64,000 nt of DNA from Bacteroidales bacterium (GTDB lineage: Bacteria; Bacteroidota; Bacteroidia; Bacteroidales; UBA932). Shown one piece after another: positions 40,912 to 56,276 of the stretch. Under the pieces are notes generated by a model. It saw nothing but the letters and a program-made list of their open reading frames with translations, had not been told where the DNA came from and did no database searches. A program made the translations under genes and the position numbers. The stretch is taken from positions 1 to 64,000 of the forward strand of contig JAFPGC010000020.1 in the NCBI GenBank assembly GCA_017423025.1. Direction: 5' to 3'. Position 1 is the first letter of the stretch. Each line of letters starts with the position of its first letter.

Positions 40912-40986
40912 GGGCCCCAAACAGTGCTAACGGTCCGGAGATAGGGACGTTAGAGCGCAAAGGAGGAATGTGAGACGCAGAAAACG

Positions 40987-41010
40987 CAGGCCCCCTTTAG
41001 GGGCCTGTTT
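40987..41010 (+). terminator. Terminator after the HhH outer-membrane protein gene
   Basis: CAGGCCCC and GGGGCCTG pair perfectly around CTTTA, followed by TTTGCGTTTT. It lies 76 bases after the gene and just before the promoter of the MMPL-Fak operon. Confidence 0.8.
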
Positions 41011-41039
41011 GCGTTTTAGGGCGAATATATGTATATTTG
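41008..41039 (+). promoter_or_regulatory. Promoter of the MMPL-FakAB-PlsX operon
   Basis: TTTG at 41008-41011 (shared with the terminator tail) and TATATTTG at 41032-41039 are 20 bases apart. ATG at 41064. No operator-like repeat is evident. Confidence 0.65.
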
Positions 41040-41063: not shown

Positions 41064-43547
41064 ATGCACAGAATCTTTCTGCCGATATACCACTTTTTCA
41101 AGGGGCACAAAGCCCTGCTATACATACTCCTGATAGCATCGACGGCTGTCTTTGGGTGGTTCGGCTCCAAACTCCAGTATGAGGAGGACATCATCAAGCT
41201 CCTCCCCCGTTCGTCTACTTCCAACGAGCTCGCTTTCAGCGACATCGGCCTTATTGACAAAATCTTTGTCCAGGTCACGTCCCGGGATACGCTCAATCCG
41301 CTGCCTCCCGAAGAACTGGGGGCCCTGGTAGAGGAATATTGTACCACGCTCGAAAAGCGGGACAGTGCCACGCACTACCTTAAGGGAGTTTTCGCGGCAT
41401 TGGACATTGATACGGCGTTGGAGGCCATGGACTTCGGCCTCAGCCACCTGCCTTCATTCGTCGACACCTCCTGGTACCGCCTCATAGAGCAGAAACTGGA
41501 AGCGGAAGCCTTCCAGGAGCAGATGGCCAAAAACTATGAAATGGTCATGGCCGATGAAACCGGAGAAGATACCCAGCTGGTTTCCATGGATCCCCTGAGC
41601 CTCAGAGATTTACTGGGAGAAATAATGGGACAGGACGCCAGCATGGGCGGTGTCACCATCTACGACGGCCATCTCTTCAGCCCGGACAAGACCGTGGCCC
41701 TGGCCTTCCTCTCCCCTTCTTTCTCTTCCACCAATTCCGGAGCCGCCACCCGCCTGGTGCGGATGATGGACCAGCTGAAAGATGAGTTTGCCGCCCATCA
41801 TCCGGAAGTCCGGATCTTGGTACACGGCAATCCGCAGGGCAGTGTTTCCAATGCCAGCACCATCAAGCGAGACCTGGTATGGTCCATCGGCCTTTCTCTC
41901 CTGCTGATCCTCATTATCATGCTCATGAGTTTCCACAAGCTGGCCTTCCTGTGGCAGCAAGTGGTCCCGGTGATATATGGCGCCCTCTTCTCCATGGCCT
42001 GCATGTATTGGATCAAAGGAGTCATGTCCCTGATGGCCCTGGGTATCAGTGCCATCGTTTTGGGCGTTGCCATCAGTTACTGCCTGCACGTACTCATCCA
42101 CTACTATTATGTGGCCGATACGGAAAAGATGCTGCGGGAAGAATCCACTCCCGTATTCCTGGGCTGCGTCACCACCATCGGCGCCTTTATGGGTCTGCTG
42201 TTCACGGAGAGCGACCTGCTGAGGGACTTCGGCCTCTTTGCCACCTTCGCCCTCATAGGCAATACCTTCTTCGCCCTCGTCTTCCTGCCCCATTTCCTCA
42301 GGCCGCAGCAGATCAGTTTCAAGCGCACCCACGGTTTCCCGCTCATTGAGAAAATCAACAATCTCCCCTGGGACCGCAACAAATGGGTTATCGGCACGCT
42401 CATCCTGGTCATTATCGTAGGCGTTATCTTCAGCCCCAAGGTCAAGTTCGACAGCGATCTCATGAACCTGGACTACGACAATGCCGAGCTCCGTGCAAGC
42501 CAGGAACTTTACAACCAGAAGAGTGCCGACGGATATGCCCACCAGTTCTTTGCCGCCTGGGACGACAACGACCTGGATGAGGCCTTGGAAAACAACAAGG
42601 GTCTTGTCAAGGCGCTGGATTCCCTCAAAGCCTGCGGCCTGGTGAAGGGTTACGTGCCCGTAGCCAAGTTCCTGTTGCACTCTACCCGTGACCAGCAGGA
42701 ACGCATCAAAGCCTGGAACGCTTTCTGGACCCGGGGCCGGGTAAGATACCTGAGGCACCTGATGGCCGATGCCGAGAGACAATACGGCCTGCCCAAGGGC
42801 TTCTACGACCCCTTCCTGGGCATGATTAGTACCCAATATGAACCCGCCAGCATCGTTGAATCGGGCATAGTTCCCGAAGGAATGCTCTCCAATTATGTAG
42901 AGCGTCAGGGCAGCGGCCGGTATATGGTGTACACCGATGTTTCCTATGACGCCAAGGATCAGACGAAAGTGTGGAAGGAACTGGCCTCGGTTGACCATGT
43001 GCTGGTTCTGGAACCCTTCTTCTACTGCCGCGACATGGTGGAAATCGTGCACGACGACTTCTCCACCACCCTGTGGATTTCCAGCCTCTTTGTCCTGATT
43101 GTGCTGCTCATCAGTTTCCGGAACATCTGGATTGCCCTCATCGCCTTCCTGCCCATGTTCGTCAGCTGGTATGTTATGCAGGGCTACATGGCACTGCTGG
43201 GCCTGGAATTCAACCTCATCAACATCGTCATTTCCACCTTTATTTACGGCATAGGTGTAGACTATAGCATATTTGTCATGGAGGGACTGCTAACCGAAGC
43301 CAGGCAGGGCGAAACCAAGATGCTGGAGTATCATAAGGTCGCTATCTTCTACAGCGCGCTGGTGCTGGGCATCGTGACCTTCTCGCTGGTGTTCGCCAGG
43401 CATCCGGCCATCCATTCCATCGGCCTCATTACGCTCATTGGAATGGCAGCCACCATCCTCATCACCTATTCCATCCAGCCCTGGATTTTCCGCGGGCTCC
43501 TGAAGATTCCTTTCTTCCGCCGCGGATTCCGTATCCCTGAGAAATAG
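41064..43547 (+). CDS. MMPL/RND-family lipid transporter
   Basis: 827 residues with the two-fold MMPL layout: transmembrane helix 1, a ~200-residue periplasmic porter domain, five or six helices, then the same again (VIGTLILVIIVGVIF, LDYDNAELRAS, helices 8-12). The GDDY-like proton-relay region is seen as YGIGVDYSIFV in the second half and LGVAISYCLH in the first. Such proteins export lipids or lipid-linked molecules. It resembles the transporter at 53412-56219 but lacks the fused PlsC domain. It is the first gene of the operon with FakA, FakB, GNAT-like, PlsX, ACP and the nucleoside kinase, so it may export their lipid product. Confidence 0.82.
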   Translation: MHRIFLPIYHFFKGHKALLYILLIASTAVFGWFGSKLQYEEDIIKLLPRSSTSNELAFSDIGLIDKIFVQVTSRDTLNPLPPEELGALVEEYCTTLEKRDSATHYLKGVFAALDIDTALEAMDFGLSHLPSFVDTSWYRLIEQKLEAEAFQEQMAKNYEMVMADETGEDTQLVSMDPLSLRDLLGEIMGQDASMGGVTIYDGHLFSPDKTVALAFLSPSFSSTNSGAATRLVRMMDQLKDEFAAHHPEVRILVHGNPQGSVSNASTIKRDLVWSIGLSLLLILIIMLMSFHKLAFLWQQVVPVIYGALFSMACMYWIKGVMSLMALGISAIVLGVAISYCLHVLIHYYYVADTEKMLREESTPVFLGCVTTIGAFMGLLFTESDLLRDFGLFATFALIGNTFFALVFLPHFLRPQQISFKRTHGFPLIEKINNLPWDRNKWVIGTLILVIIVGVIFSPKVKFDSDLMNLDYDNAELRASQELYNQKSADGYAHQFFAAWDDNDLDEALENNKGLVKALDSLKACGLVKGYVPVAKFLLHSTRDQQERIKAWNAFWTRGRVRYLRHLMADAERQYGLPKGFYDPFLGMISTQYEPASIVESGIVPEGMLSNYVERQGSGRYMVYTDVSYDAKDQTKVWKELASVDHVLVLEPFFYCRDMVEIVHDDFSTTLWISSLFVLIVLLISFRNIWIALIAFLPMFVSWYVMQGYMALLGLEFNLINIVISTFIYGIGVDYSIFVMEGLLTEARQGETKMLEYHKVAIFYSALVLGIVTFSLVFARHPAIHSIGLITLIGMAATILITYSIQPWIFRGLLKIPFFRRGFRIPEK

Positions 43548-43549
43548 AC

Positions 43550-45148
43550 ATGAACCTGGACTCTGAACTATACCTGAACCTCATCCGCGGCGGCGCCGCA
43601 AGCCTGGCCCAAAGACGCCAGGAAATCAACGACCTCAATGTCTTCCCCATTCCGGACGGAGACACCGGGGACAATATGTACATGACCATTGAAGCCGGCA
43701 CCCACGCCAGCGGGAATACCTTGGGTGAAATGGCCGACTCCGTTTCGCAGGGCATGCTTCTTGGCGCCCGCGGCAATTCCGGCGTCATCCTTTCCCGCAT
43801 CTTCGCCGGCATGGGCAAGGCCTTCAAAGGCCTCAAGCAGGCCGATAGCAAGCAGTTCAACGCCGCCATGAAGGCCGCCGTCGAGGAAGCTTATCACGCC
43901 GTCTCACAGCCTGTGGAAGGCACCATCCTCACCGTCCTCCGCGAAGGCGTGGCGGCAGCCGAAGGATCGGCCGGTATGGAGGAGTTCTTCGACCTCTGGA
44001 TTGCCGGTATGGACCTGAGCCTGCAGCACACTCCCGACCTTCTGGACGTGCTCAAAAAGGCCGGTGTAGTGGACAGCGGCGGCGCAGGCCTCCTCTGTAT
44101 AGCCGAAGGCATGCGCGATGCCTTACATGGCGACGTGTTGTCTGTCATGCCGAGCGAAGCGAGTGCATCTCCTGCCCCTAAAGTAGACTTTTCCGCCTTC
44201 ACCGAAGACAGTGTCCTCGAGTTTGGCTATTGCACGGAATTCCTCCTGCGCCTGCAGCGCAGCAAAGTGGATTTGGACACCTTTGACGAGTCCGTCATCC
44301 ACGACTGGCTGGAAACCCGGGGAGATTCCCTGGTCTTTTTCCGCGACGGCTCCATCGTCAAAGTGCACGTGCACACTATGGATCCCGGCGCCGTGCTCAC
44401 CAAATGCCGCGAATGGGGCGAATTCCTTACCATCAAGGTAGAGAATATGACCCTCCAGCACCACGAGAACCATATGGACGAGCGTTTCAAGCGCACCGGC
44501 AAGGCTCTGGGCATCGTGACCGTCGCCTCGGGAAAGGGCTTGACCGCCACCTTCCAGGAAATGGGGGCCGATGCCGTCATAGAAGGCGGCCAGACTATGA
44601 ACCCTTCCGTAGAGCGCTTCCTGGAGGCCTTTGACAACGTGGGCGCGGAAACCATCCTGGTCTTCCCCAACAATAGCAATATCATCCTCACGGCGCGTCA
44701 GGCGGCCGATATCTACGACAAGTCCAAGATCGTGGTCATCCCCACGCACACCCTGGGAGAAGGCTATTACGCAATGGCCAACCTTCAGACCGACCTTCCC
44801 CTGGAAGAGATCACACAGACCCTGGAAGAAGCCGCCAAGGCTGTCACTACAGGCTCCGTTTCCAAGGCCATCCGGGACACGGCCGAGGCCCGCACCGGCG
44901 AGTTCATAGGCTTCAGCGGTAAGGACGTCCTCTGCTGCTGCCCCGAACGTCCCGCCGCAGTGCAGTCGCTGGCGCAGAAGTTATCGGCCCAAAACTCCGA
45001 CATCATCATTCTTCTCCAGGGGGCCGATGCACCAGCGGACGAAGCCTCACAATTACAAAACGATCTTCAGAACACATACAAGAACACCGAAGTCATCCTC
45101 ATTGACGGCGGACAACCTGTTTACGATTATATTTTAGTGCTATGTTAA
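43550..45148 (+). CDS. fakA: Fatty-acid kinase catalytic subunit FakA-like (DAK2/DhaL domain)
   Basis: 532 residues. The DhaL kinase domain shows NVFPIPDGDTGDNM (residues 30-43, metal/ATP ligands) and GARGNSGVILS, followed by SGGAGLLCI. The middle domain (FGYCTEFLL and HVHTMDPG) and the C-terminal DegV-like domain complete the FakA architecture. With FakB it phosphorylates fatty acids to acyl-phosphate. This two-part system is best known from Firmicutes and is unexpected here. A short palindromic repeat (44144-44171) lies in the linker region and encodes SVMPSEASAS. FakB follows with a 7-base overlap. Confidence 0.85.
   Translation: MNLDSELYLNLIRGGAASLAQRRQEINDLNVFPIPDGDTGDNMYMTIEAGTHASGNTLGEMADSVSQGMLLGARGNSGVILSRIFAGMGKAFKGLKQADSKQFNAAMKAAVEEAYHAVSQPVEGTILTVLREGVAAAEGSAGMEEFFDLWIAGMDLSLQHTPDLLDVLKKAGVVDSGGAGLLCIAEGMRDALHGDVLSVMPSEASASPAPKVDFSAFTEDSVLEFGYCTEFLLRLQRSKVDLDTFDESVIHDWLETRGDSLVFFRDGSIVKVHVHTMDPGAVLTKCREWGEFLTIKVENMTLQHHENHMDERFKRTGKALGIVTVASGKGLTATFQEMGADAVIEGGQTMNPSVERFLEAFDNVGAETILVFPNNSNIILTARQAADIYDKSKIVVIPTHTLGEGYYAMANLQTDLPLEEITQTLEEAAKAVTTGSVSKAIRDTAEARTGEFIGFSGKDVLCCCPERPAAVQSLAQKLSAQNSDIIILLQGADAPADEASQLQNDLQNTYKNTEVILIDGGQPVYDYILVLC
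44144..44171. repeat. Palindromic repeat inside fakA
   Basis: GTCATGC...GCATCTC ends flank a CGAGCGAAGCGAG core, matching the common GTCATGCCGAGCGAAGCGAG type of dispersed palindromic repeat. It is in-frame within the linker after the FakA kinase domain, so it was inserted without breaking the gene. Confidence 0.7.
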
Positions 45149-46008
45149 AGATATACACGGACACCGATACCGATATTAATCCCGCCCTGGCGGCCGAATA
45201 CGGTTACACCCTCATCTCCATGCCCTACAGCGTGGATGCCAAAACCACTTATCCTTACGTGGATTTCGAGACCTTTGACGGCCACGCATTCTACGACATG
45301 CTGCGCGGCGGCGTCCTGCCCACCACCAGCGCCATCTCCAAAGAGCAGTATATCAACTACTTCCAGGAGGATTTCAAATCCGGTAACGATATTCTCTACG
45401 TGCACTTCTCCCGCGCCATGACCAACACCTTCGACGTCATGGACCAGGCCATTGCCGAACTCAAAACCCAATACCCGGCCACCCGCTTCGAAGAAATCGA
45501 CACCAAGGGCATTACCACCATCAGCTACGCCATCGTGCGCGAGGTGGGAGACCTCGTCAAGGCCGGCAAGACGCTGGACGAGGTTTTGGAATGGGCCAAG
45601 ACCGAGGTGGACAAGTTTGCCATGTATTTCTTTGCCGATGACCTCAAGTTCTTCCGCCGCAGCGGTCGCGTAAGCGGTCTCGCTGCCACCATGGGTACAC
45701 TTATCGGCGTACGTCCCCTCATCCACATGAGCCAGGCCGGCAAGATGGAATCCATCGGCACGGTCAAAGGCCGTCCCAATGCCATGAAGGCCCTGGTGGA
45801 CAAGGTGGCCGAACTGGGCGACGAGATTGGGAAGCACCGCATCTGCATCGGCCATACCGATGCCCCCGAGATTGCCCAGGAGGTTGGCCGGATGATTGAG
45901 GACCGCTTCGGCAAGCAGAATATTGAATACGTTTACGTGAACCCTACCGCCGGAAGCCACTGCGGCCCCAACGGCGTAGGAGTTTGCTTCCACGCAATTC
46001 ATCGCTAG
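45142..46008 (+). CDS. fakB: DegV-family fatty-acid-binding protein FakB-like
   Basis: 288 residues of the DegV family. It has the N-terminal IYTDTDTDINPALAAEYG, the fatty-acid carboxylate site LPTTSAIS, the FRRSGRVSGLAATMG loop (phospho-group site) and the closing HCGPNGVGVCF. FakB binds the fatty acid and presents it to FakA for phosphorylation. The opening D-T-D-T-D differs from the more usual D-S-T-x-D. It is fused by overlap to fakA and followed by a decayed palindromic repeat at 46010-46034. Confidence 0.85.
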   Translation: MLKIYTDTDTDINPALAAEYGYTLISMPYSVDAKTTYPYVDFETFDGHAFYDMLRGGVLPTTSAISKEQYINYFQEDFKSGNDILYVHFSRAMTNTFDVMDQAIAELKTQYPATRFEEIDTKGITTISYAIVREVGDLVKAGKTLDEVLEWAKTEVDKFAMYFFADDLKFFRRSGRVSGLAATMGTLIGVRPLIHMSQAGKMESIGTVKGRPNAMKALVDKVAELGDEIGKHRICIGHTDAPEIAQEVGRMIEDRFGKQNIEYVYVNPTAGSHCGPNGVGVCFHAIHR

Positions 46009-46009
46009 C

Positions 46010-46034
46010 GTCATTCCCGGCCTGACCGGAAACC
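46010..46034. repeat. Decayed palindromic repeat between fakB and the GNAT-like gene
   Basis: GTCATTCCCGGCCTGACCGG then AAACC. It matches the 52556-52582 repeat on the left arm but the right arm has mismatches (CCGGAAAC instead of CCGGGAAT), so it is an eroded copy. It begins two bases after the fakB stop. Confidence 0.7.
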
Positions 46035-46049
46035 CTAAACAATAGGATC

Positions 46050-47180
46050 ATGATAGAAGTCAAAGAAGTAACCACTAAAAAGGAGCAGAAGCAGTTCCTG
46101 AACTTTGCTTTGGACCTGTACAAGGGCAACCCTTACTTTGTGCCGCCGCTATATGCCGACGAGCGCAAGATGTTCGAGAAGGACTATGTGTACAAGAGCA
46201 GCTGCGAGTGGACCTACTTCATGGCCTACAAAGACGGCGTTCCGGCCGGACGCATCCAGTGCATCATCCAGAAGGACGCCAACGCCAAAAATGGGGAAAA
46301 GCGCTGCCGGTTCAGCCGTTTTGACGCCATCGAGGACGTGGAAGTTTCCAAAGCCCTCTTTGAAAAGGCCGAAGCCTGGGCCCTGGAGAAGGGAATGGAC
46401 ACCATGGTGGGCCCTCTCAACTTTTCCGATCTGGAACGGGAAGGCATGCTGGTAGAGGGCTTTGAAGAGCCGGCTACCTTCGAGGAAAACTACAACTTCC
46501 CCTATTACAAGGATCATGTGGAAGCCCTGGGCTACCAGAAGGAGATTGACTGGACGGCCAGCCGCCTTTATGGGCCGGAGAGTCCGGAAGCCCTGCAGGA
46601 AATGGAAGAGCTCATTGCCTTCATTTTCAAGCGCTACAAACTGCATTATGGCACAGCCAAGAACGGCCCGGACCTTCTGAAAAAGTACTCCGAAGGGATC
46701 TTTGACCTGATTGACACCTCCTATGAGGGCCTGTACGGAACCGTTCCCTTTACCGAGGCCATGCGCAAACTGGTCCTGGAGAACTTCGCTATGGTCATCA
46801 ATCCCCAGCACACGGCCGTAATCCTGGACGAGAACGACAAAATCGTCTGCTTCGGCCTCTCCTTCCCCGGCCTGGCCCCTGCTCTTGTGGGAACCCGCGG
46901 CAAATACACCCCGCTCACCCTCCTGAAGCTCTTGTACTACATCAAAAGGCCCAATATCATAGACCTGTGCCTGGTGGGCGTAGACCCCGAGTACTTGAAC
47001 CGTGGCGTTTCCGGTGCCCTGAGCCTGTCCATTATGAAATCGCTGCGGGACAATCCCCGCATCAAATGGGCCGATACCAACCTGAACCTGGAAGACAACT
47101 ACGCCATCCTGAACCAGTGGCGCCGCTTCAAGAGAGATGAATGCAAGCGCTACAGAGCCTATGTAAAGAAATTAGTATGA
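46050..47180 (+). CDS. GNAT-like acyltransferase, second paralogue
   Basis: 376 residues, paralogous to 28153-29295 (shared FALDLYK...VPP, GPLNFSDLEREGMLVEGFE, YNFPYYK blocks). It carries the C-terminal donor-binding V-x-P-x-x-x-x-x-G motif as VGVDPEYLNRGVSGALSLS. Its stop overlaps the plsX start (ATGA), so it is coupled to the enzyme that makes acyl-ACP. Together with FakA/B, PlsX and the ACP this suggests it uses acyl-ACP or acyl-phosphate to acylate an amine or lipid; this is inference, no reaction is known for this family as I recognise it. Confidence 0.7.
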   Translation: MIEVKEVTTKKEQKQFLNFALDLYKGNPYFVPPLYADERKMFEKDYVYKSSCEWTYFMAYKDGVPAGRIQCIIQKDANAKNGEKRCRFSRFDAIEDVEVSKALFEKAEAWALEKGMDTMVGPLNFSDLEREGMLVEGFEEPATFEENYNFPYYKDHVEALGYQKEIDWTASRLYGPESPEALQEMEELIAFIFKRYKLHYGTAKNGPDLLKKYSEGIFDLIDTSYEGLYGTVPFTEAMRKLVLENFAMVINPQHTAVILDENDKIVCFGLSFPGLAPALVGTRGKYTPLTLLKLLYYIKRPNIIDLCLVGVDPEYLNRGVSGALSLSIMKSLRDNPRIKWADTNLNLEDNYAILNQWRRFKRDECKRYRAYVKKLV

Positions 47181-48196
47181 TTAAGATATTAATTGACTGC
47201 TTCGGAGGCGACCATTGCCCGCAGGCACCCGTAGAAGGCGCCCTGGCGGCCCTTGCCAAGAACAAGGACCTGTATATCCTTCTGCTGGGTGACGAGCAGA
47301 TTTTGCAGAAAGAACTGGCAGGAAAGGCCTATGATACCCAGCGTCTGGAAATTGTCCACGCTCCGGAAGTGATAGGCTGCGACGAGAAGCCCACCGACGT
47401 GGTGCGCCTCAAGCGCAACTCATCCATGATGAAGGGCATCATCCTTCTGCGGGACCGTGACGACATTTCCGCCCTGGTTTCCACCGGTTCCACAGGTGCC
47501 CTGGTGACCGGTGCCCTTGTCCGACTGGGTCGCATCCCCGGCGTCATCCGCCCGGCCTTCTGTCCCCTGCTCCCTACCATGAACGGAGGCATCGTAGGCA
47601 TCTGCGACAGCGGTGCTAACGTCGATGTTACATCGGCCCATCTGCGCCAGTTTGCCATTATGGCGTCCCTTTACATGGAAAACGTGTATGGCGTGAAAAA
47701 CCCGCGCGTAGCGCTCCTGAATGTGGGAAAAGAGGCCGAGAAAGGCGATGACATCCGACGCGAGGCATACGGTCTGCTGCAGGAAACCGAAGGGCTCAAC
47801 TTCGTGGGCAACATGGAAAGCCGCGACCTCCTCTCCGGCAGTTACGACGTTGTGGTGGCCGATGGTTTCAGCGGCAACGTCTTGGTAAAAACCACCGAAG
47901 GAACCGCCCTGGAACTGCTGAAGAAGCTCAAGAAGGAAATCTTCAGCCGCACCCTGTACAAGATAGGCGCCCTGCTTATGAAAAAGATGTTTGCCGATAT
48001 GAAGGAGTTCATGAACTACCAGAATTACGGCGGCAGTGTGCTCCTGGGCACTTCCAAGGTAGTCGTCAAGGGACACGGCTCGTCCAACGCCACCGCAGTG
48101 GAAAAGTGCATAGAACAGGCCTACAAGATGGAAGTAAGCCAGCTCTCCGGAAAGATTGAAGCCGAAATAGCCAAATACGAACATTACGAAGAATAA
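47177..48196 (+). CDS. plsX: Phosphate acyltransferase PlsX
   Basis: 339 residues from ATG 47177 (overlapping the GNAT-like stop). The isocitrate-dehydrogenase-like fold shows MIKILIDCFGGDHCPQAPVEG, LVSTGSTGALVTGALVRLG, CPLLPTMNG and VVADGFSGNVLVKTTEG. PlsX interconverts acyl-ACP and acyl-phosphate. In a FakAB locus it can convert the kinase product, acyl-phosphate, to acyl-ACP (reverse direction). Length is normal and no residue looks missing. Confidence 0.92.
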   Translation: MIKILIDCFGGDHCPQAPVEGALAALAKNKDLYILLLGDEQILQKELAGKAYDTQRLEIVHAPEVIGCDEKPTDVVRLKRNSSMMKGIILLRDRDDISALVSTGSTGALVTGALVRLGRIPGVIRPAFCPLLPTMNGGIVGICDSGANVDVTSAHLRQFAIMASLYMENVYGVKNPRVALLNVGKEAEKGDDIRREAYGLLQETEGLNFVGNMESRDLLSGSYDVVVADGFSGNVLVKTTEGTALELLKKLKKEIFSRTLYKIGALLMKKMFADMKEFMNYQNYGGSVLLGTSKVVVKGHGSSNATAVEKCIEQAYKMEVSQLSGKIEAEIAKYEHYEE

Positions 48197-48201
48197 ACCC
48201 T

Positions 48202-48435
48202 ATGTTTGAAAAAGTACAAACCATCCTGGCGAAGCAGCTTCGCCTGGATCCCTCCAAAATCACCCTGCAAAGTCTCATTAAGAAAGACCTCGGGGCCGAT
48301 TCCCTGGACATCCTCCAGCTTCTGATGCGCATCGAGGATCAGTACGGCATAGTCATCCCCGACCAGGAACTGGCCAAGTTCGAGACGGTAGGTGATGTGG
48401 TAGCTTTTCTGGAAAAACAAGAAGTTAAATTATAG
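48202..48435 (+). CDS. Acyl carrier protein (PlsX/Fak locus)
   Basis: 77 residues with the phosphopantetheine Ser34 in DLGADSLDILQLLM. It follows plsX by five bases. Second of four ACP genes in the window. Being co-transcribed with FakAB, PlsX and the GNAT-like protein, it is likely the carrier for recycled fatty acids. Confidence 0.9.
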   Translation: MFEKVQTILAKQLRLDPSKITLQSLIKKDLGADSLDILQLLMRIEDQYGIVIPDQELAKFETVGDVVAFLEKQEVKL

Positions 48436-48447
48436 CCATTCAATCCC

Positions 48448-50106
48448 ATGGTCCAGGTCTATTGTAAGAATACGAAGGAGACGAAGCGCTTCCCCGAAGG
48501 CACGTCCCTTGTGCAGATGCTTTCCGAGTTTGACTGCAAAACGCCCTACCCCATTGTGTCTGCCAAGGTGAACAATGTGTCCCAGGGTCTCAAGTTCAAG
48601 GTCTACCAGAACAAGGACATCGAGTTCATCGATGTCCGTGAACCCAGCGGCATGCGCGTCTATTGCCGTTCTCTTTATTTCTTACTTTACAAGGCGGCCT
48701 GCGACGTACTGCCGGGCAGCAAGCTCTACATTGAGCACCCCATTTCCCACGGCTATTTCTGCCACGTAAAAAAGGCCGACAGCACCCATATCACTCCGGA
48801 AGAAATCACCCTGGTGGGTGCCCGGATGAAGGAACTCGTAGAGAAAGACCTCCCCTTCCACCGCTATGACGTGCAGACGGAAAAGGCCATCAAGGAATTC
48901 AAGAAGGCCGGCTTCGAAGACAAGGTGCGCCTGCTGGAAACCAGCGGAGAGGCCTATACGGACTACTATACGCTGGGAGACACGGCCGATTACTTCTACG
49001 GCAAGCTGGTCCCCTCGACCGGATATCTCACCGTCTGGGACATCCAGCCCTATCACGACGGTCTGCTCCTGAGGGTTCCTTCCCGTGAAGACCCTACCCA
49101 TGTGGCCGATTTCGTAGACCAGCCCAAGACCTTCGAAATGTTCAAGGAAGCCCTCCGCTGGAACATCATCATGGGTCTGAGCACCGTGGGAGACGTAAAC
49201 GAAGCCTTCTTGAATGGCCGCGCCAGCGAGCTCATCCAGATAGCGGAAGCCCTTCAGGAAAAGAAAATCGTCCAGATAGCGGAAGAGATAGACCGCCGCT
49301 ACAAAGACAAGGAGAATCCCCTGCAGGTGGTGCTGATTACCGGCCCTTCCTCATCCGGTAAAACCACCTTCTGCAAGCGCCTCTCCATCCAGCTCAAGGC
49401 CTGTGGCCTCAAGCCTATGTCCGTGAGTACAGACGATTATTTTGTGAACCGGGAAGATTCTCCCCGATTCCCCGACGGCAGTTTCGATTTCGACAACTTT
49501 GAGACGGTGGACCACGTCCTCATGGAAAGCGATATCATGAAACTGATCCAGGGAGAGGAGGTGTCGGTACCGGAATTCAATTTTGTCACCGGACTGCGGG
49601 AATACAATGGCAAGAAACTCAAACTGGGCGAAGGCCGCATTCTTCTCATCGAAGGAATCCACGCCCTGAATCCCGGCCTCACCAGCCATATTCCCGACAC
49701 AGCCAAATTCAAGATTTTCATCAATACGCTTACCGGCACCCTGCTGGACGACCACAACAGCATCCCCACCAGCGACAACCGCCTGCTGCGCCGCATTGTC
49801 AGGGACTACAACGCCGGAGCTTTTACCGCCCGCGAGTCCATTTCCCACTGGCAGAATGTACTGGATGCCGAGCAAAAGTGGATTTATCCTTTCCAGGAGA
49901 CGGCAGACGTGATGTTCAACAGTGCCTACCTCATTGAGTTTGCCGTGCTTAAGAACCACGCCGAGCCCATCCTCCGCAGCGTTCCCCAGAACTGCGCCGA
50001 GTTCGCCGAGGCCCACCGCCTCCTCAAGTTCATCCACTACTTTACTCCCGTCCCGGATAAAGAAATCCCCGCAACGTCATTGTTGCGGGAATTTATCGGA
50101 GGATAG
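48448..50106 (+). CDS. Nucleoside kinase with TGS-like N-terminus
   Basis: 552 residues. The N-terminal ~70 residues are TGS-like; then a threonyl-tRNA synthetase-like second domain (residues ~80-200) and, from ~290, a uridine kinase/P-loop kinase: VVLITGPSSSGKTTFCKRLS, STDDYFVNRE, NFETVDH and LLIEGIHALNPGL. This is the standard architecture of the bacterial 'nucleoside kinase' family. It phosphorylates uridine/cytidine-like substrates. It is the last gene of the operon. A pair of inverted palindromic repeats fills the gap to the next gene. Confidence 0.88.
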   Translation: MVQVYCKNTKETKRFPEGTSLVQMLSEFDCKTPYPIVSAKVNNVSQGLKFKVYQNKDIEFIDVREPSGMRVYCRSLYFLLYKAACDVLPGSKLYIEHPISHGYFCHVKKADSTHITPEEITLVGARMKELVEKDLPFHRYDVQTEKAIKEFKKAGFEDKVRLLETSGEAYTDYYTLGDTADYFYGKLVPSTGYLTVWDIQPYHDGLLLRVPSREDPTHVADFVDQPKTFEMFKEALRWNIIMGLSTVGDVNEAFLNGRASELIQIAEALQEKKIVQIAEEIDRRYKDKENPLQVVLITGPSSSGKTTFCKRLSIQLKACGLKPMSVSTDDYFVNREDSPRFPDGSFDFDNFETVDHVLMESDIMKLIQGEEVSVPEFNFVTGLREYNGKKLKLGEGRILLIEGIHALNPGLTSHIPDTAKFKIFINTLTGTLLDDHNSIPTSDNRLLRRIVRDYNAGAFTARESISHWQNVLDAEQKWIYPFQETADVMFNSAYLIEFAVLKNHAEPILRSVPQNCAEFAEAHRLLKFIHYFTPVPDKEIPATSLLREFIGG

Positions 50107-50158
50107 ATGCCCGATCGGAGTCGGGCATAACGTCATGGCCAGCCTGACCGGCCATCTC
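50105..50158. repeat. Inverted pair of palindromic repeats filling a convergent gap
   Basis: The first unit, ATGCCCGA-TCGGAG-TCGGGCAT (50107-50128, read GTTATG...CATCT on minus), and the second, GTCATGGCCAG-CCTGA-CCGGCCATCTC (50132-50158, plus), are head to head and touch each other. Both have the form GTYATG-arm-loop-arm-CATCT. They take up the whole gap between the convergent stops and may terminate both transcripts. Confidence 0.8.
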
Positions 50159-51258
50159 TACATTACAGGATTGGCATAGATTCTCAAAAGAATGTCCCGG
50201 AGCTCTTCGGGATATTCTTTTGTTATTGTATCCACGTGCTGGATAAAGGCGTCTCTCTCGGCGTCCGTGTAGGAATGAGCGCGCTTTCCGCTCAGAAGGT
50301 CAGCGGCAATGTAGTTATTGGGATACAGACGGTAAGCGGACCTGATACGGGAGTCTATCAGCTCTGCCACGCCCTTGTTGAAGTCCGGATTGGAACAGTC
50401 ATGATACTTTTCCAACTCCTCGCGGCGAATAGGCTCGCAAACCGTGAGGTGAACGCGGCCCTTGGGCTGAGTGATGCCTGTCAGGATGCTGTTCAAGTCT
50501 TCTCCCGGCTTTTTGATATAAGGCTGGCCGGAACTCTTGGCATAAAGCTCCAGGGCCTTTAATTCGTCGCAGGGCTCCCATTCATAGGAGATGGACAGCG
50601 GAGCTATGTTGAGTTCATCCAGGGCTGCTATACGGTCTTCTCCGCCGGAAAGATTGAACATCTTGATAATCCCCTGGTCCGTCAGGTCCATCCCGTCCTT
50701 GGTGCGGCCGTTGCGCTGGGCAATCCAAACGCTTTCCTTCTTCTGCGTTATGGCGAAACGGATATACTCCGACACATACTGGCTCTTGAGAAGAAAATCA
50801 CGGGCCGATGTCACCGTCGTAGGCCGTTCAATGCGGAACATCTTGTTGCTCCGGCCCACGTCAATGACCAACTGACCCTGCATGAGGTTGGCCCCGAAGG
50901 TGATTTCGGAAGTCTTTCGGCCTGCGTCGCTCAGCAGCACCTGCAGGAAGCCGGCATCCATCATGATATCCCGGTGGTTGGAGATAAAGAGATAGTCTTT
51001 ATTCGGATCCAGGCGTTCCATTCCCGATACGGAAAGGCCGTCGGTAGTTTTGTGGGCAATGGCATAGATAACCTTGTACATGACCCGCATCTGGAACTCT
51101 TCCACGGTGCGGCAGCTGCCCACAAGAGCCGCAATCTCCTGCACCGGCGTACCCGGAAACAGGAAATCACACACCAGAGGGAAATACTTGTCGGACACAA
51201 TCCGCTGCATAGCTGCAGGGATTTCAGAATCTACATAAGGCCGAATATCATCAAACAT
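50158..51258 (-). CDS. PlsB/PlsC-like acyltransferase (aryl-polyene cluster side)
   Basis: 366 residues from ATG 51256-51258 (the longer open frame to 51348 has no support). The acyltransferase site is ISNHRDIMMDAGF, an HX5D variant of HX4D. Other blocks: GANLMQGQLVIDVGRSNK, WIAQRNGRTKDGMD (phosphate-site) and LSISYEWEPCDELKALEL. No membrane helix is obvious. The start overlaps the AMP-ligase stop by 8 bases. It is the last gene of the minus-strand cluster. Confidence 0.8.
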   Translation of the reverse strand: MFDDIRPYVDSEIPAAMQRIVSDKYFPLVCDFLFPGTPVQEIAALVGSCRTVEEFQMRVMYKVIYAIAHKTTDGLSVSGMERLDPNKDYLFISNHRDIMMDAGFLQVLLSDAGRKTSEITFGANLMQGQLVIDVGRSNKMFRIERPTTVTSARDFLLKSQYVSEYIRFAITQKKESVWIAQRNGRTKDGMDLTDQGIIKMFNLSGGEDRIAALDELNIAPLSISYEWEPCDELKALELYAKSSGQPYIKKPGEDLNSILTGITQPKGRVHLTVCEPIRREELEKYHDCSNPDFNKGVAELIDSRIRSAYRLYPNNYIAADLLSGKRAHSYTDAERDAFIQHVDTITKEYPEELRDILLRIYANPVM

Positions 51259-52546
51259 GTTTGGCGCGTTTATCAATAAACTTAACGGGCTTGCGGCTCT
51301 TGGCCGGGAAATTGATGGCCGCCACCTCGGGGACGGGCAGGATCTCAATCCTGGGAGCCACCCGGATGCGGGAACGGAAGCGGTCCTTGAGGTCTTTGAC
51401 GGCGTCGAACTCGGGTTGGTACTTGAGGCCCAGCTGCACTACCACATCGTCGGTTCCGGCATCGGAATCCTGCACTATCACCACGTAATTCTCTACATAT
51501 GGGGTGTTGTCCAGGACATCGTTCACTGCCGGCGGATAGAGGGTAGTACCCTTGAGCTTTATCATATTGTTCTTTCGTCCCACAAGAGGGGTGAGGCGGT
51601 AGCTGTATCGGCCGCATTTGCACTGCCGGGTAATCTTGGCAGCCATGTCGCCGGTGCGGAAGCGCAGAAGGGGCATTCCTTCCACGCCCAGCGTGGTAAT
51701 CACAATCTCTCCCACCTCACCATCCGGCACCGGAAGATTATCCTCGCCGATGATTTCCACAATGATAAGTTCCGGATGCACATGCCCGCCGCAGCCGTAA
51801 GGGCACTCGGAGAAGGTGGCGCCCATTTCTGTGGAGGAATAGGTAGCATAAAGCTCCACGTCCCATTTTTCCTTGATGCGGCGGCCAAGAAGGTTCAGGT
51901 CGAAGTTCTGATCCCTCATCCCCTCGCCAATGCCTATGATGCGCTTGATGGAGGAGTTCTTATAATCGATGCCGTGGTCCTCGGCATACTGGATAAGCCT
52001 CAGAATAAAGGACGGCACGCACATGATGGTATCCGGTTTGAGCCGGTTGATGGTGTCCCACTGCAGTTCCGGAATGCCATTGCCCACGCGGATGATGCTG
52101 GCGCCCAGTTTCCGGATGCCCAGGAAATAGGCCAGACCGGCCATGAAGCGCTTGTCGATGGTGGTCATCAACTGCACAATATTGCCCGGTCCCAGGCCGG
52201 CGCACTCGAAGCTCTTCTTCTCGTTGTAGGCCAGACGCTCCAGGTCCTTGTCGGTGCAGCCGAAGGTCACGGGATCTCCCAGCGTACCGGAAGTGGTCAC
52301 ATAATCCACCACTTTCTCCTTGGGGCAGCAGAGGAACTCGTCGTTGAACAATTGCAAATCCTTCTTCTCCGTGAAAGGAATCTTCTGCAAATCTTCAATG
52401 GTTCGAATCTTCTCTATATCAATATGATACTTCTCAAACATACGCTGGTAGTACTTGGAATTCTCCTTCAAGTATACCAACGCCTCGTGCAGCAATCCTT
52501 CCTGGAATGCCTTGATCTCTTCCGGTTTTTTAAATTCGATGTCCAT
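51251..52546 (-). CDS. PaaK-like AMP-forming ligase
   Basis: 431 residues of the phenylacetate-CoA ligase branch: YVTTSGTLGDPVTFG (P-loop A3), YATYSSTEMG (A5), FRTGDMAA (A7) and GRKNNMIKLKGTTLYPPAV (A8, with Lys). Two Cys-rich spots (CPYGCGGHVH and CKCGRYSY) are present. It activates an aryl or acyl acid as adenylate, consistent with making the starter of an aryl-polyene. It overlaps the acyltransferase gene and sits three bases after the hydrolase gene. Confidence 0.85.
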   Translation of the reverse strand: MDIEFKKPEEIKAFQEGLLHEALVYLKENSKYYQRMFEKYHIDIEKIRTIEDLQKIPFTEKKDLQLFNDEFLCCPKEKVVDYVTTSGTLGDPVTFGCTDKDLERLAYNEKKSFECAGLGPGNIVQLMTTIDKRFMAGLAYFLGIRKLGASIIRVGNGIPELQWDTINRLKPDTIMCVPSFILRLIQYAEDHGIDYKNSSIKRIIGIGEGMRDQNFDLNLLGRRIKEKWDVELYATYSSTEMGATFSECPYGCGGHVHPELIIVEIIGEDNLPVPDGEVGEIVITTLGVEGMPLLRFRTGDMAAKITRQCKCGRYSYRLTPLVGRKNNMIKLKGTTLYPPAVNDVLDNTPYVENYVVIVQDSDAGTDDVVVQLGLKYQPEFDAVKDLKDRFRSRIRVAPRIEILPVPEVAAINFPAKSRKPVKFIDKRAKHV

Positions 52547-52549
52547 ATC

Positions 52550-53428
52550 CTATTCGTCATTCCCGGCTTGACCGGGAATCTCTTTTAACCAATTGATAAA
52601 TAATTCCTGCCAATTCTTCGTATTCTCATTCTGCTTCTGGGGATTGGCCCCGAAGCCGTGACCTCCGGTCTCATATTGCGTATACAAGTGGGGAACATGT
52701 TTCGCCGTCAAGGCCGAATCCAGCAATACCGAATTCCGATAATCCACAATGGGGTCGTCCAGGCAGTTGAGCAGGAACACCGGCGGCGTATCGGCCTTTA
52801 CGTGCTGTTCCAGGGACATGGAATCCCGCATCTCCTGCCGGAACACCGTCCATTCACCCAGTAGTCCCAGGCGCGAGCGTTTATGCACCGGCCGGGCCGA
52901 TAAGGTCACCACCGGATAGATGGGGGCTACAAAATCCGGCCTCAGCGAGACCTCAGGCTCAATGCCATACCGGGCCAGGAAATTGGTGCCGAAGTATTCT
53001 CCCGCACTCATCACCAGGTGCCCGCCCGCACTGAAGCCGATGGCTCCCACGGGGCCATCATAGCGTTCCCGGATCAGTTCTATGGCCCGCTGGATATCGC
53101 AAATCATGTCTGGATGCCGATGGCCGCGCAGAACCGTGCGGTACTTGACCACAAATTCGATCTTACCCGCCACACGGTATTTGAGCAAGTAGGCCGCATA
53201 CCCTTCCGAAGCCAGCCACTGTGCCACCTTGCTGCCTTCCGTATCCATATCGTGCCAATGGTAGCTGCCGCCCGGACAAACCACAAGCGCCGCCTTGGGC
53301 TCCCCTTCCGGCAAGAAGGCCGTCATGGTTACGCTTCGGTTATGACACTTCGTCCCCTCCCAGATGCGTTCTTGAGCAAGCACCGGGAGAGTGATAAACA
53401 GTAGCAGCAGACTAAGCGTCCTTTTCAT
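52550..53428 (-). CDS. Secreted alpha/beta hydrolase
   Basis: 292 residues. Signal peptide MKRTLSLLLLFITLPVLA. Esterase/lipase motifs: CPGGSYHWH (oxyanion), GFSAGGH (nucleophile), a charge-relay Asp in LDDPIVDY and His in GGHGFG. The family (BD-FAE/Axe-like) de-esterifies carbohydrates or lipids. Its last 11 residues (KEIPGQAGNDE) are encoded by a palindromic repeat at 52556-52582. It overlaps the MMPL-PlsC gene by 17 bases. An unusual member of the cluster. Confidence 0.82.
   Translation of the reverse strand: MKRTLSLLLLFITLPVLAQERIWEGTKCHNRSVTMTAFLPEGEPKAALVVCPGGSYHWHDMDTEGSKVAQWLASEGYAAYLLKYRVAGKIEFVVKYRTVLRGHRHPDMICDIQRAIELIRERYDGPVGAIGFSAGGHLVMSAGEYFGTNFLARYGIEPEVSLRPDFVAPIYPVVTLSARPVHKRSRLGLLGEWTVFRQEMRDSMSLEQHVKADTPPVFLLNCLDDPIVDYRNSVLLDSALTAKHVPHLYTQYETGGHGFGANPQKQNENTKNWQELFINWLKEIPGQAGNDE
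52556..52582. repeat. Palindromic repeat forming the 3' end of the hydrolase gene
   Basis: ATTCCCGG-CTTGA-CCGGGAAT with flanking GTC...CTC. It encodes the last residues of the hydrolase (PGQAGNDE) up to the stop. Confidence 0.75.
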
Positions 53429-56219
53429 ACCAATCCACGTAAAAATGTCTCATCTGCCGGGTAAACTCGGCAATATCGGCCTCTTGGGGAACCTGCACAC
53501 GCTCCCCTATCTCCAGGGCCAGGGGATGCGGCCGAAGCAGGAAGTCATGCTTGGGCAGCGCTTCATGGAATCCCCGGATGAGGATGGGCAGAAGGTCCAT
53601 TCCCAGCTCCCGGGCTGCGAGGAAAGCACCGCGGTGGAATCGGCCTATCCTGCCGTCGTTGGTACGCGTCCCCTCGGGGTAAATGGCCACGGAATATCCT
53701 TCGGCCGCCATCTTCTTCACATGCTCGCTATTGACGGAGAGTCCCCAGGATGCGGGGAAATACCCCGCTTTGCGGATGACGGCCCCATAGAAGGGAGATT
53801 TCCATACCCAGTCGTTGGTCATGAAAATGAGCTTGGGATGGAGGGCAATCAAGGCCAGCACATCCAGATGGCTCTGGTGATTGCAGATATAAATCGCCGG
53901 TTTGCTAAAATCCTCACCGTGAGGGTTTTTAATAGTATACCGACAACCCGGGACTATGTGAATGGCCCAGGAAGCCACGCGCCTAACAACTTTGTTAAAT
54001 GCCGGTCCCGTAGGGAAAAACAGCGCCAGCAGCGACAGCAGGGACATCCAGATAACCATCTGGAGCGCAATATAGACCGTAGCCAGCATTCCGCCAATCG
54101 TAAGCGGGTGCGGGCGAGGTTTTCCGTGTTTAAAATGAAGCCAGCGGTAGACGATGGGAGGAAGGTAGCAGGCCATGGCTACCACGGTAATCATACCTAT
54201 CACCGTCACCAGGCCCAGCGAGCGCAACGCCGGATGCTTGGCAAAAGCCAGGACGCCAATGCCGATGAACATGATAATGGCACTGAGTACAACCGCATTG
54301 CTGTAGGAATGAAGAATCTTCTTGCCGGTCTTGTACTCGTATTCCAGCCCCTCGGTAATGAAGATGCTGTAATCGTCTCCCATGCCAAAGATAAAGGTGG
54401 CCAGGATAATGTTCACTATATTGAATTGCAGCCCCGTCAGGCCCATGATTCCCCTGATCCAGATCCAGCTCACCGCCAGCGGCAGGAAGGCAATCAGAGT
54501 AAAGTCCAGAGACCCAAAGCTGATCCATAGGAAAATAAGGACAATAAGGCTGCATACCAGGCCGATGGTGTCGAAATCCTCCGAAAGGGCGTTTACCAGG
54601 GCCCCGGCGGCATTCTCCTGCGGGGCAAAGTCCACGGGCTGGAAATAAGCCCTTTCCTGAGGCTCCCAGGAGGCTTCAATGGCATCGAAGAAAGGCTGGA
54701 AGCCGTGAGCGGTAAAGCCCGCCTTGAGCCCCTCGTCAATAAGAAGATCCGGCACCTCCTGATGACGGTTCCAGAAATCCTTCCACAGGCCGATTCTCAC
54801 CTGCTGCTCTTCAAGGGAAGGAAGCGGGAAAGCGTCCGCTGCGGGAGACAGGGACTCCAGAAGGGCAAATCCCTGCGACTGTTCCGCCGTCATATAATTG
54901 ATATTGTGCAGGTTGGAGTCGAACTGGAGTCTTTTACCGGTAAAGAAGAACACGACGGTAAGGGCCAGGAAAGCCAGAAAGATCCACCGGCGGGTTTCCT
55001 CTCCCGCGTGGAAATAGCGGCCCGGATCCAGTTTGATAACCTTCCTCTCCCCCTGATATACCGGCATAAACACCGGAAGGAAGAACAGCACGAAGAGGAT
55101 GGTTCCCACCAGCATCATGGCGCCGATGAACCCGAAGTCATGCAGGGCTTCCGATTTCAGAAGAAGCAGCCCCAGGAAGGCACCCACCGTAGTGATGTTG
55201 CCGGTAAGGAGAGGATTCACCTGCTCTGCCAGGGCTTCCCGACGGTTGGGCTGGTACTTCAGATGGTCAATATAATGGAGCGGATAATTGACGGCAATCC
55301 CTATGACGGTGCAACCTATTCCCAGTACGATAATGCTTACGCTGGCCTTGAAACAGGCAATGATGCCCAGGGCAAAAACAGCCCCCACCGTAATGGAAAC
55401 AAGGATCCACAGGACATCCTGCACGCGTTTGTAACTCAGCCACAGCACAACGCAGATGAGAATAAGGGCCACAGCCAGGGCCAGGAAAGAATCGGTTTTG
55501 ATGCGGGAAGAATTCTCCACAGCCACCTCGGGCCCGCCGGTAGATGTAATCTGAACCGAAGGGAAAGCCTGGGCCGTTTCCTCTTTCAAGGAATTCAGGG
55601 CCGATAGCAGCTCTCCGTTAAGGGCACTTTCCGTGCTGCCGTAAGGCGAGTCAAAAAAGAGGATATCCGTATCCTGAAGGGCATCGGGCTGTGCAGCCTG
55701 AAGACGGTTCAGAACGGGCGAATAAAGGCCCAGAGGGTCGCTTCTGAGATACTTGGCCGTAAAAGGATTGCCCAGGACAAGCGCTTCCCGGTCCTCTTGC
55801 AGTTTGGCCGGAATGTAGCCCGGAGCAGCCAGCAGGGAGTCCATCCGGACATAATCTTCCGGCTGCAGGAAATAGGGCCAGTTGGAATTAAGGAAATCAA
55901 ACACCTGGGCCGCCTCAGACGAACCTTCATAGACATAGATATCTGGAAAAGCCTCTTCCCAGCGGTCCTGAAAAGCATATAGAGCCTCTTTACGCTCTTC
56001 CGCCGTACCGCCCCGGAAGAAGACCGCCATTTTCTCGTCCCCTCCGGAGGCCTGCAATTGCTCCCGGGAATCTTTGGGCAAGAAGGCCGATATATCCTCC
56101 TCAAAATGAAGCCTCGAAGCACTCCAGGCGCTCAGAGCCAGGAGCACAGCCAACAACAGCCCCGCCAGCCCTTTGTGGGCCGACAGATAGTCGTATATCT
56201 TCAAGACGAAGCTTTTCAC
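53412..56219 (-). CDS. MMPL transporter fused to a PlsC acyltransferase
   Basis: 935 residues starting at a GTG (MKSFVLKIYDYLSA). The first ~690 residues are an MMPL exporter with two porter domains and GMGDDYSIFI in the second half. The last ~200 residues form a PlsC domain with NHQSHLD (HX4D) and IYPEGTRTNDG. This fusion is known in aryl-polyene/flexirubin clusters and would acylate and export the pigment lipid. It has its own promoter and operator-like repeat upstream. Confidence 0.87.
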   Translation of the reverse strand: MKSFVLKIYDYLSAHKGLAGLLLAVLLALSAWSASRLHFEEDISAFLPKDSREQLQASGGDEKMAVFFRGGTAEERKEALYAFQDRWEEAFPDIYVYEGSSEAAQVFDFLNSNWPYFLQPEDYVRMDSLLAAPGYIPAKLQEDREALVLGNPFTAKYLRSDPLGLYSPVLNRLQAAQPDALQDTDILFFDSPYGSTESALNGELLSALNSLKEETAQAFPSVQITSTGGPEVAVENSSRIKTDSFLALAVALILICVVLWLSYKRVQDVLWILVSITVGAVFALGIIACFKASVSIIVLGIGCTVIGIAVNYPLHYIDHLKYQPNRREALAEQVNPLLTGNITTVGAFLGLLLLKSEALHDFGFIGAMMLVGTILFVLFFLPVFMPVYQGERKVIKLDPGRYFHAGEETRRWIFLAFLALTVVFFFTGKRLQFDSNLHNINYMTAEQSQGFALLESLSPAADAFPLPSLEEQQVRIGLWKDFWNRHQEVPDLLIDEGLKAGFTAHGFQPFFDAIEASWEPQERAYFQPVDFAPQENAAGALVNALSEDFDTIGLVCSLIVLIFLWISFGSLDFTLIAFLPLAVSWIWIRGIMGLTGLQFNIVNIILATFIFGMGDDYSIFITEGLEYEYKTGKKILHSYSNAVVLSAIIMFIGIGVLAFAKHPALRSLGLVTVIGMITVVAMACYLPPIVYRWLHFKHGKPRPHPLTIGGMLATVYIALQMVIWMSLLSLLALFFPTGPAFNKVVRRVASWAIHIVPGCRYTIKNPHGEDFSKPAIYICNHQSHLDVLALIALHPKLIFMTNDWVWKSPFYGAVIRKAGYFPASWGLSVNSEHVKKMAAEGYSVAIYPEGTRTNDGRIGRFHRGAFLAARELGMDLLPILIRGFHEALPKHDFLLRPHPLALEIGERVQVPQEADIAEFTRQMRHFYVDWYEKDA

Positions 56220-56224
56220 CCGAG

Positions 56225-56250
56225 TTGTAGATTTCTAATCTACAAATGTA
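56225..56250 (-). promoter_or_regulatory. Internal promoter with operator-like inverted repeat before MMPL-PlsC
   Basis: On minus, the -7 box TACATTTG (56243-56250) overlaps a 9-base inverted repeat (TTGTAGATT-TCT-AATCTACAA, 56225-56245) placed around the predicted transcript start. The MMPL-PlsC start GTG is at 56219. A repressor binding the repeat would block this promoter. Confidence 0.6.
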
Positions 56251-56276
56251 GCAAAAATCCAGGGAAAAGCGAAAGA

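What the first reader, a model, noticed from the sequence alone, without database searches (positions are those of the whole stretch)
41064..50106. FakAB-PlsX-ACP-GNAT-MMPL operon in a Bacteroidota-type genome
Seven tightly packed plus-strand genes combine fatty-acid kinase (FakA, FakB), PlsX, an ACP and a GNAT-like acyltransferase with a leading MMPL exporter and a nucleoside kinase at the end. Fak is known mainly from Firmicutes (established), where it turns free fatty acid into acyl-phosphate that PlsX can put on ACP. Its placement beside an acyltransferase and exporter suggests a route from recycled fatty acid to an exported acylated lipid (inference). Junctions are overlaps or small gaps throughout, so one transcript is likely.
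Basis: partly seen in the sequence, partly recalled or inferred. Interest (0 to 1): 0.82.

Follow-up and report, generated by a model that had tools for sequence, protein, structure and literature searches.

The report
Kinase-fed ceramide synthase gene cassette
A block of five neighbouring genes, kept in the same order in rumen Bacteroidales and in some gut Clostridia, is predicted to activate free fatty acids with a kinase, load them onto a small carrier protein and likely attach them to a sphingoid base to make ceramide, which would be a new way of feeding bacterial sphingolipid synthesis.

Summary
The conserved unit is five of the seven: fakA-fakB-GNAT-plsX-acp. The MMPL exporter is added in Bacteroidales only; the nucleoside kinase is a neighbour whose strand flips. 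The cassette is accessory: FakA is in 40 of 180 genomes of the window's genus, and all 40 have PlsX. PlsY was found in 0 of 180, so PlsX cannot feed the usual phospholipid route and most likely makes acyl-ACP. The GNAT protein is a full-length homologue of E. coli YghO, the family of the bacterial ceramide N-acyltransferase. The same cassette occurs in Clostridia, where it brings a second PlsX (9 of 9 carriers). Carriers have serine palmitoyltransferase (SPT) far more often than non-carriers: 7 of 9 against 0 of 17 in Clostridia, 38 of 40 against 52 of 140 in the genus. I read it as a kinase-fed ceramide synthase module: FakAB and PlsX stand in for the acyl-ACP synthetase of the known Caulobacter/E. 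coli cluster. Shown: anatomy, order, co-occurrence, homology. Inferred: direction of PlsX, acyl acceptor, export. Main doubts: YghO-type proteins are in 174 of 180 congeners though SPT is in 90, and a minority of loci lack the GNAT and carry a PlsC-type enzyme instead.

The parts
40981..41017 (+). hairpin, possible terminator of the upstream gene
   Evidence: RNA fold -25.2 kcal/mol for 40975-41035, z -3.31
41008..41039 (+). predicted Bacteroidales-type promoter (TTTG-N20-TATATTTG)
   Evidence: exact pattern match; 5 in the window, 0.39 expected; consensus recalled
41064..43547 (+). MMPL/HpnN-like RND lipid transporter, 827 aa; leads the operon in Bacteroidales, not found with Clostridial cassettes
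   Evidence: PF03176 60.9 bits, TIGR03480 146.7 bits, below cut-off; directly upstream of fakA in 40 of 49 Bacteroidales loci with room, 0 of 16 Clostridial ones
43550..45148 (+). fakA, fatty acid kinase catalytic subunit, 532 aa, with DGDTGDN at residue 36
   Evidence: three Pfam FakA domains; TIGR03599 over cut-off; solved chain 7w7h over residues 5-529, E 5e-100; motif
45142..46008 (+). fakB, DegV-family fatty-acid-binding subunit, 288 aa
   Evidence: PF02645; matches chains named FakB and other DegV proteins
46050..47180 (+). GNAT1: tandem-GNAT N-acyltransferase of the YghO/bCerS family, 376 aa; predicted ceramide synthase
   Evidence: 26% identity to E. coli YghO over the full length; model pLDDT 89.5, tandem GNAT fold
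47177..48196 (+). plsX, the only one found in this genome; start likely 47177, first ATG 47141
   Evidence: TIGR00182 over cut-off; one hit in own genome; start check
48202..48435 (+). acyl carrier protein, 77 aa, phosphopantetheine site DSL (Ser34)
   Evidence: PF00550, TIGR00517 over cut-off, motif
48448..50106 (+). uridine-kinase-like protein; neighbour, not part of the conserved cassette
   Evidence: PF00485; strand flips between loci, 10 plus and 6 minus

Best explanation
This five-gene cassette (fakA-fakB-GNAT-plsX-acp), likely shared between phyla by horizontal transfer, is predicted to turn free fatty acid into acyl-phosphate, likely pass it to its own acyl carrier protein through PlsX, and would then N-acylate a sphingoid base with its YghO-type GNAT enzyme to give ceramide. 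Steps: FakB binds a fatty acid and FakA phosphorylates it (inferred from family). PlsX, a reversible enzyme (recalled) with no PlsY to serve in this genus, runs towards acyl-ACP (inferred from the absence of PlsY, which is shown). The GNAT uses acyl-ACP to acylate the product of serine palmitoyltransferase, encoded elsewhere in the genome (the SPT gene is shown; the reaction is inferred). In Bacteroidales the MMPL/HpnN-like protein may move the lipid outward (guess). It would do the job that acyl-ACP synthetase, special ACP and YghO do in the Caulobacter and E. coli sphingolipid clusters, with a kinase route in place of the synthetase.
For: Order conserved across two phyla: 42 of 47 Bacteroidales loci with room and 5 of 19 Clostridial loci with room; L097 has all five genes with less room, L099 all but a detected ACP, L100 the blocks in the other order. 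In the genus, FakA in 40 of 180 and all 40 have PlsX; PlsX without FakA in 2 of 140. PlsY 0 of 180. In Clostridia the cassette PlsX is a second copy: 9 of 9 GNAT1 carriers have two PlsX; of 17 non-carriers 15 have one, one has none and one has two fragments. GNAT1 is a full-length YghO homologue; E. coli SFE8 has spt, acp, epimerase, fatty acyl-AMP ligase and yghO together, and PMC9386255 lists yghO with CC_1154 as the presumptive ceramide N-acyltransferase gene (passages read). SPT in the window's own genome: 491 bits to a solved SPT; SPT of at least 400 bits in 22 of 24 Bacteroidales locus genomes searched. SPT in 7 of 9 GNAT1-bearing and 0 of 17 GNAT1-less Clostridia-group genomes (Fisher 5.5e-5); in the genus 38 of 40 FakA genomes against 52 of 140 others (7.9e-12; subset at least 90% complete and at most 5% contaminated 15 of 15 against 23 of 57); FakA is in 21 of 37 genomes with SPT type A, 17 of 53 with type B and 2 of 90 without strong SPT. 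An SDR gene, the family expected for 3-ketosphinganine reductase (recalled), follows SPT on 5 of 7 Clostridial contigs. SPT and cassette contigs of one bin match in tetranucleotides: own cassette contig ranked 1st of 80 in 5 of 7, 2nd in 1, 21st in 1.
Against: YghO-family proteins are in 174 of 180 congeners although strong SPT is in only 90, so the family as a whole is not tied to sphingolipids and GNAT1 may use another amine. Two of 9 GNAT1-bearing Clostridia lack a strong SPT (one has a 232-bit relative, one none). In 5 of 40 FakA genomes of the genus GNAT1 was not found, and all 5 still have SPT; in three loci (L046, L049, L107) its place is taken by a divergent PlsX, an ACP-size ORF and a ~440-aa protein, read as a PlsC-type acyltransferase in the one tested, L107, so Fak-PlsX-ACP may have several outputs. 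One congener, G465, has GNAT1 without FakA. G696 has a second YghO-type gene right beside its SPT. Co-occurrence tests ignore relatedness, and the named loci and the 180 genomes overlap in part. The relatives are nearly all metagenome bins. No activity was tested.
Confidence: 0.52

Rival explanations
1. Same acyl-ACP supply, but GNAT1 acylates a different amine (an amino acid, capnine or another aminolipid), and the tie to SPT reflects shared lineages or membrane style.
For: YghO-type proteins in 174 of 180 congeners against strong SPT in 90; 2 of 9 GNAT1-bearing Clostridia without strong SPT; at least one relative (G721) carries a cysteate fatty acyltransferase-like enzyme, 504-510 bits to solved ones, so related amines may exist there.
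Against: Only a Kbl-type enzyme and SPT were found as alpha-oxoamine synthases in the window's own genome; GNAT1 tracks SPT in two phyla; its homologue YghO sits in an spt cluster in E. coli.
Confidence: 0.25
2. Plain fatty-acid salvage: FakAB-PlsX makes acyl-ACP for phospholipids or for elongation by FAS II, and the GNAT is a passenger.
For: Fak feeding phospholipid synthesis is known in Firmicutes (PMC13400652 passages); a cassette variant carries a PlsC-type acyltransferase; acyl-ACP is a general substrate.
Against: GNAT1 lies beside PlsX in 35 of 35 genomes of the genus with both and is kept across phyla; the Clostridial carriers have another PlsX; PlsY was not found in the genus.
Confidence: 0.13
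3. PlsX runs the usual way (acyl-ACP to acyl-phosphate) and GNAT1 takes the acyl group directly from acyl-phosphate held by FakB, as PlsY does for phospholipid.
For: fakB and GNAT genes are neighbours; no PlsY was found to use acyl-phosphate.
Against: The solved tandem GNATs and N-myristoyltransferases it resembles are titled with acetyl-CoA, CoA or myristoyl-CoA (FemX-type rows with aminoacyl-tRNA also appear), none with acyl-phosphate; a dedicated ACP gene ends the cassette.
Confidence: 0.06

Closest known systems
Rhodobacterial sphingolipid cluster (aasR-acpR-spt-epi-aca/yghO; Caulobacter, E. coli BL21)
   Same: A dedicated ACP, an enzyme that loads it with free fatty acid, and a YghO-family N-acyltransferase, in genomes with SPT.
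   Different: Loading would be by FakA, FakB and PlsX instead of an AMP-forming acyl-ACP synthetase; SPT and the reductase are not in the cassette.
Firmicutes fatty acid kinase system (FakA/FakB with PlsX/PlsY)
   Same: FakA with all three domains, a DegV-family FakB, PlsX.
   Different: No PlsY found in the genus; PlsX, ACP and a GNAT acyltransferase share one operon with Fak.
Bacterial ceramide synthase bCerS/YghO family
   Same: Full-length homology to E. coli YghO, tandem GNAT fold.
   Different: Only 26% identity; a separate clade in a Fak-PlsX-ACP operon; acceptor unknown. CC_1154 itself was not compared.
HpnN/MMPL lipid-exporting RND proteins
   Same: HpnN-like over two stretches, 147 bits.
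   Different: Far below the HpnN cut-off of 752; cargo unknown.

Membership tests
FakAB fatty acid kinase | FakA with Dak2, middle and C-terminal domains | tested here: met
   all three Pfam models over cut-off; TIGR03599 512 against 396
FakAB fatty acid kinase | NCBIfam equivalog cut-off for FakA/VfrB (NF038248, 975 bits) | tested here: not met
   422 bits; so the name FakA here rests on the subfamily model TIGR03599 and the Pfam domains
FakAB fatty acid kinase | DegV-family FakB partner encoded beside FakA | tested here: met
   PF02645 and TIGR00762 over cut-off; FakB1 equivalog model 88 of 350 bits, not reached
FakAB fatty acid kinase | phosphorylates FakB-bound fatty acid | not testable with these tools
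   needs enzyme assay
PlsX/PlsY phospholipid route | PlsX present | tested here: met
   345 bits against 243, one copy in own genome
PlsX/PlsY phospholipid route | PlsY present | tested here: not met
   0 of 1 own genome, 0 of 180 in the genus, while 8 of 14 control genomes ring; bins are incomplete
YghO/bCerS family | full-length homology to YghO | tested here: met
   26% over residues 1-375, E 8e-41 in a two-sequence comparison
YghO/bCerS family | tandem GNAT N-acyltransferase fold | tested here: met
YghO/bCerS family | N-acylates 3-ketosphinganine or sphinganine | not testable with these tools
   needs assay
Bacterial sphingolipid pathway | serine palmitoyltransferase in the genome | tested here: met
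   own genome: L142, 491 bits to solved SPT against 226 to cysteate acyltransferase
Bacterial sphingolipid pathway | CerR or 3-ketosphinganine reductase in the window's genome | not tested
   SDR beside SPT was seen on 5 Clostridial contigs and on L198, not looked for in the window's own genome
HpnN hopanoid transporter | NCBIfam HpnN cut-off | tested here: not met
   147 of 752 bits

The most novel reading that the evidence does not exclude
Gut Clostridia, as well as rumen Bacteroidales, make sphingolipids with a shared, mobile ceramide-synthase cassette in which fatty acid kinase and a dedicated PlsX, not an acyl-ACP or acyl-CoA synthetase, charge the acyl donor, so that ceramide is built from scavenged host or dietary fatty acid.
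Probability: 0.4. Interest if true: 0.85.

Novelty: new variant of a known kind. Interest (0 to 1): 0.72.

Why it matters
It would add another way of activating fatty acids for ceramide, explain what PlsX does in genomes with no PlsY, and predict sphingolipids in a set of Clostridia. It gives a clean, testable candidate for the ceramide N-acyltransferase in gut lineages with several YghO-type proteins, and it would tie free fatty acids in the gut directly to bacterial sphingolipids, which are reported to affect hosts (abstract of PMC10865984).

Tried and rejected
Considered and set aside: (1) PlsX as a housekeeping phospholipid enzyme in this genus: PlsX was not found in 138 of 180 genomes (one of them has a 19-bit match) and PlsY in none of 180. 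(2) FakA as a common Bacteroidota gene: over cut-off in 1 of 395 and, among 298 relatives, in 39, of which 37 belong to the genus. But 21 of the 395 have a 241-315-bit FakA-like match, and the divergent one that I read, L183 (G682), has all three FakA domains; such divergent Fak-like proteins elsewhere in the phylum were not followed. (3) Nucleoside kinase as part of the unit: strand flips. (4) Contamination of Clostridial bins with Bacteroidales SPT: SPT there is 49-54% identical to the window's; of the best 120 relatives of one of them (8000 scored), the few rows with an organism name say Clostridia, Clostridiales, Oscillospiraceae or Firmicutes, and contigs reach 456 kb; it matches the cassette contig in composition (rank 1 or 2 of 80) in 6 of 7 bins, not in G713. 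(5) Direction of transfer: in the GNAT tree the 8 Clostridial rows form one clade among Bacteroidales, but the outgroup branches are very long; the FakA tree (76 of 81 possible rows; L049, L053, L062, L078 and L100 gave no usable ORF) splits the phyla cleanly with a midpoint root. Direction left open.

Led nowhere: PDB sequence search with GNAT1; paper searches for ceramide synthase with GNAT (no papers); FakA with sphingolipid (83 papers, 20 listed; none of those titles or abstract starts links Fak to ceramide synthesis). The papers recalled for the Caulobacter bCerS and for Alistipes fatty-acid use are not held.
Full report
WHAT IS THERE. The seven ORFs of the finding are real and tightly packed. 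A perfect Bacteroidales promoter pattern stands 24 bases before the first gene (consensus recalled) and a stable hairpin precedes it, overlapping its first bases, so transcription from one start is likely. The GC content of the genes is close to that of three neighbours, so composition shows no recent arrival. The genome is an unnamed bin of 2.39 Mb, 87% complete; named relatives of its FakA are mostly rumen and gut Bacteroidales bins, one of them Candidatus Cryptobacteroides.

THE CONSERVED UNIT. A scan of named genomes with FakA kept 80 loci of 584 that encode a relative: 54 Bacteroidales or Bacteroidia and 26 that I group as Clostridia (L088 is named only 'bacterium'). Among 47 Bacteroidales loci with more than 4.2 kb after FakA, 42 have fakB-GNAT-plsX-acp in order, 3 are a variant, in L054 the ACP was not found and in L073 the ACP lies before plsX. 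MMPL is directly upstream in 40 of 49 with room. In the Clostridia group, 5 of 19 with room have the five genes in order; L097 has them with less room, L099 has no ACP hit, L100 has GNAT-plsX-acp before fakA-fakB, and L082 ends after fakB while the GNAT and PlsX of its genome start another contig. No MMPL hit was found in the 26 Clostridial loci. L092, L101 and L111 have a cassette-type FakB but no GNAT.

WITHIN THE GENUS. In 180 genomes: FakA in 40 (over 100 bits; one further at 29 bits), PlsX in 42 (35 over the cut-off, 7 of a divergent type; one further at 19 bits), GNAT1 (at least 426 bits) in 36. All 40 FakA genomes have PlsX; only G484 and G546 have PlsX without FakA, and G484's lies in another context. 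GNAT1 is in 35 of the 40, and in one genome without FakA (G465). FakA and PlsX are on one contig within 6.5 kb in 36 of 40 (the other 4 on different contigs); GNAT1 and PlsX are neighbours in 35 of 35. PlsY was not found in any of 180, and the Bacteroides control genome is not among those ringing for PlsX or PlsY (it is named as a control). So PlsX seems to have come with Fak into a lineage without the PlsX/PlsY route. Without PlsY, the sensible product of FakAB and PlsX is acyl-ACP, and an ACP gene follows. In Clostridia the cassette PlsX is a second copy in 9 of 9 carriers.

THE LINK TO SPHINGOLIPIDS. The window's genome has an SPT (L142; 491 bits to solved SPT 8guh and 3a2b). SPT of at least 400 bits is in 22 of the 24 Bacteroidales. 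Of the 26 Clostridia-group genomes, 9 have GNAT1 and 7 of those have such an SPT; of the 17 without GNAT1 none has (Fisher 5.5e-5). An SDR gene follows SPT on 5 of 7 Clostridial contigs. In the genus 38 of 40 FakA genomes have strong SPT against 52 of 140 others (7.9e-12), and 15 of 15 against 23 of 57 in the high-quality subset; FakA occurs with both SPT types. These tests treat genomes as independent, which they are not; the two phyla are the only clear replicates.

WHAT SPEAKS AGAINST. YghO-type proteins are in 174 of 180 congeners while strong SPT is in 90, so some members must do something else; at least one relative carries a cysteate fatty acyltransferase-like enzyme (two stretches fetched, one searched), and sulfonolipid N-acylation is a possible role (inference). 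The window itself has a second member (28153-29295) and the genome has three in all. The variant locus, with a divergent PlsX, its own small ACP and a PlsC-type enzyme in place of the GNAT, shows that Fak-PlsX-ACP can feed another acyltransferase, and the three variant genomes searched still have SPT, as do the 5 FakA genomes of the genus without GNAT1. G696 has another YghO-type gene beside SPT.

READING. Fak-PlsX-ACP is best seen as an acyl-ACP-making front end with an exchangeable acyltransferase; in its main form, that acyltransferase is likely the ceramide synthase. What works like it: the acyl-ACP-synthetase-fed cluster of Caulobacter and E. coli. What differs: the activation chemistry. 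It is not a PlsX/PlsY system (PlsY tested, not found). The Black Sea survey PMC11334938 (passages) already extends potential sphingolipid producers to 40 phyla, so SPT in Clostridia may not be new in itself; its tie to a Fak cassette was not seen in my searches (open-licence papers only, listings only).

Noticed in passing
window 28153-29295 (+) and 29534-31030 (-): A second YghO-type tandem GNAT protein (32% identical to the operon's) end to end with an AMP-binding acyl ligase; possibly a second acyl-transfer pair.
   Followed up: partly
window 50158-63829 (-): Flexirubin or aryl-polyene-like genes next to the cassette: FlxY ligase over its NCBIfam cut-off, an acyltransferase, an MMPL-PlsC fusion, ketoacyl synthases, a methyltransferase.
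   Followed up: partly
L046, L049, L107, L176; L177 without FakA: Variant locus: a divergent PlsX (31-34%), a small ACP-size ORF and a ~440-aa protein, PlsC-type where tested (L107), in place of GNAT-plsX-acp.
   Followed up: partly
L183:8714-10534 (G682) and the 21 sub-cut-off hits: A divergent ~600-aa FakA-like protein in other Bacteroidota; the one read (L183) has all three FakA domains and a 294-aa ORF after it.
   Followed up: no
L201:441-1559 (-), from G721: A cysteate fatty acyltransferase-like enzyme (504-510 bits to solved ones) in a genome that also has SPT.
   Followed up: partly
window 16178-17998 (-): C10-family peptidase with a Spi inhibitor domain, beside BACON-domain and lipase-like genes.
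   Followed up: no
G484:C36 (L174:7436-8461): A full PlsX in a congener without FakA, near RNase III and GidA-like genes; possibly a foreign contig in the bin.
   Followed up: no
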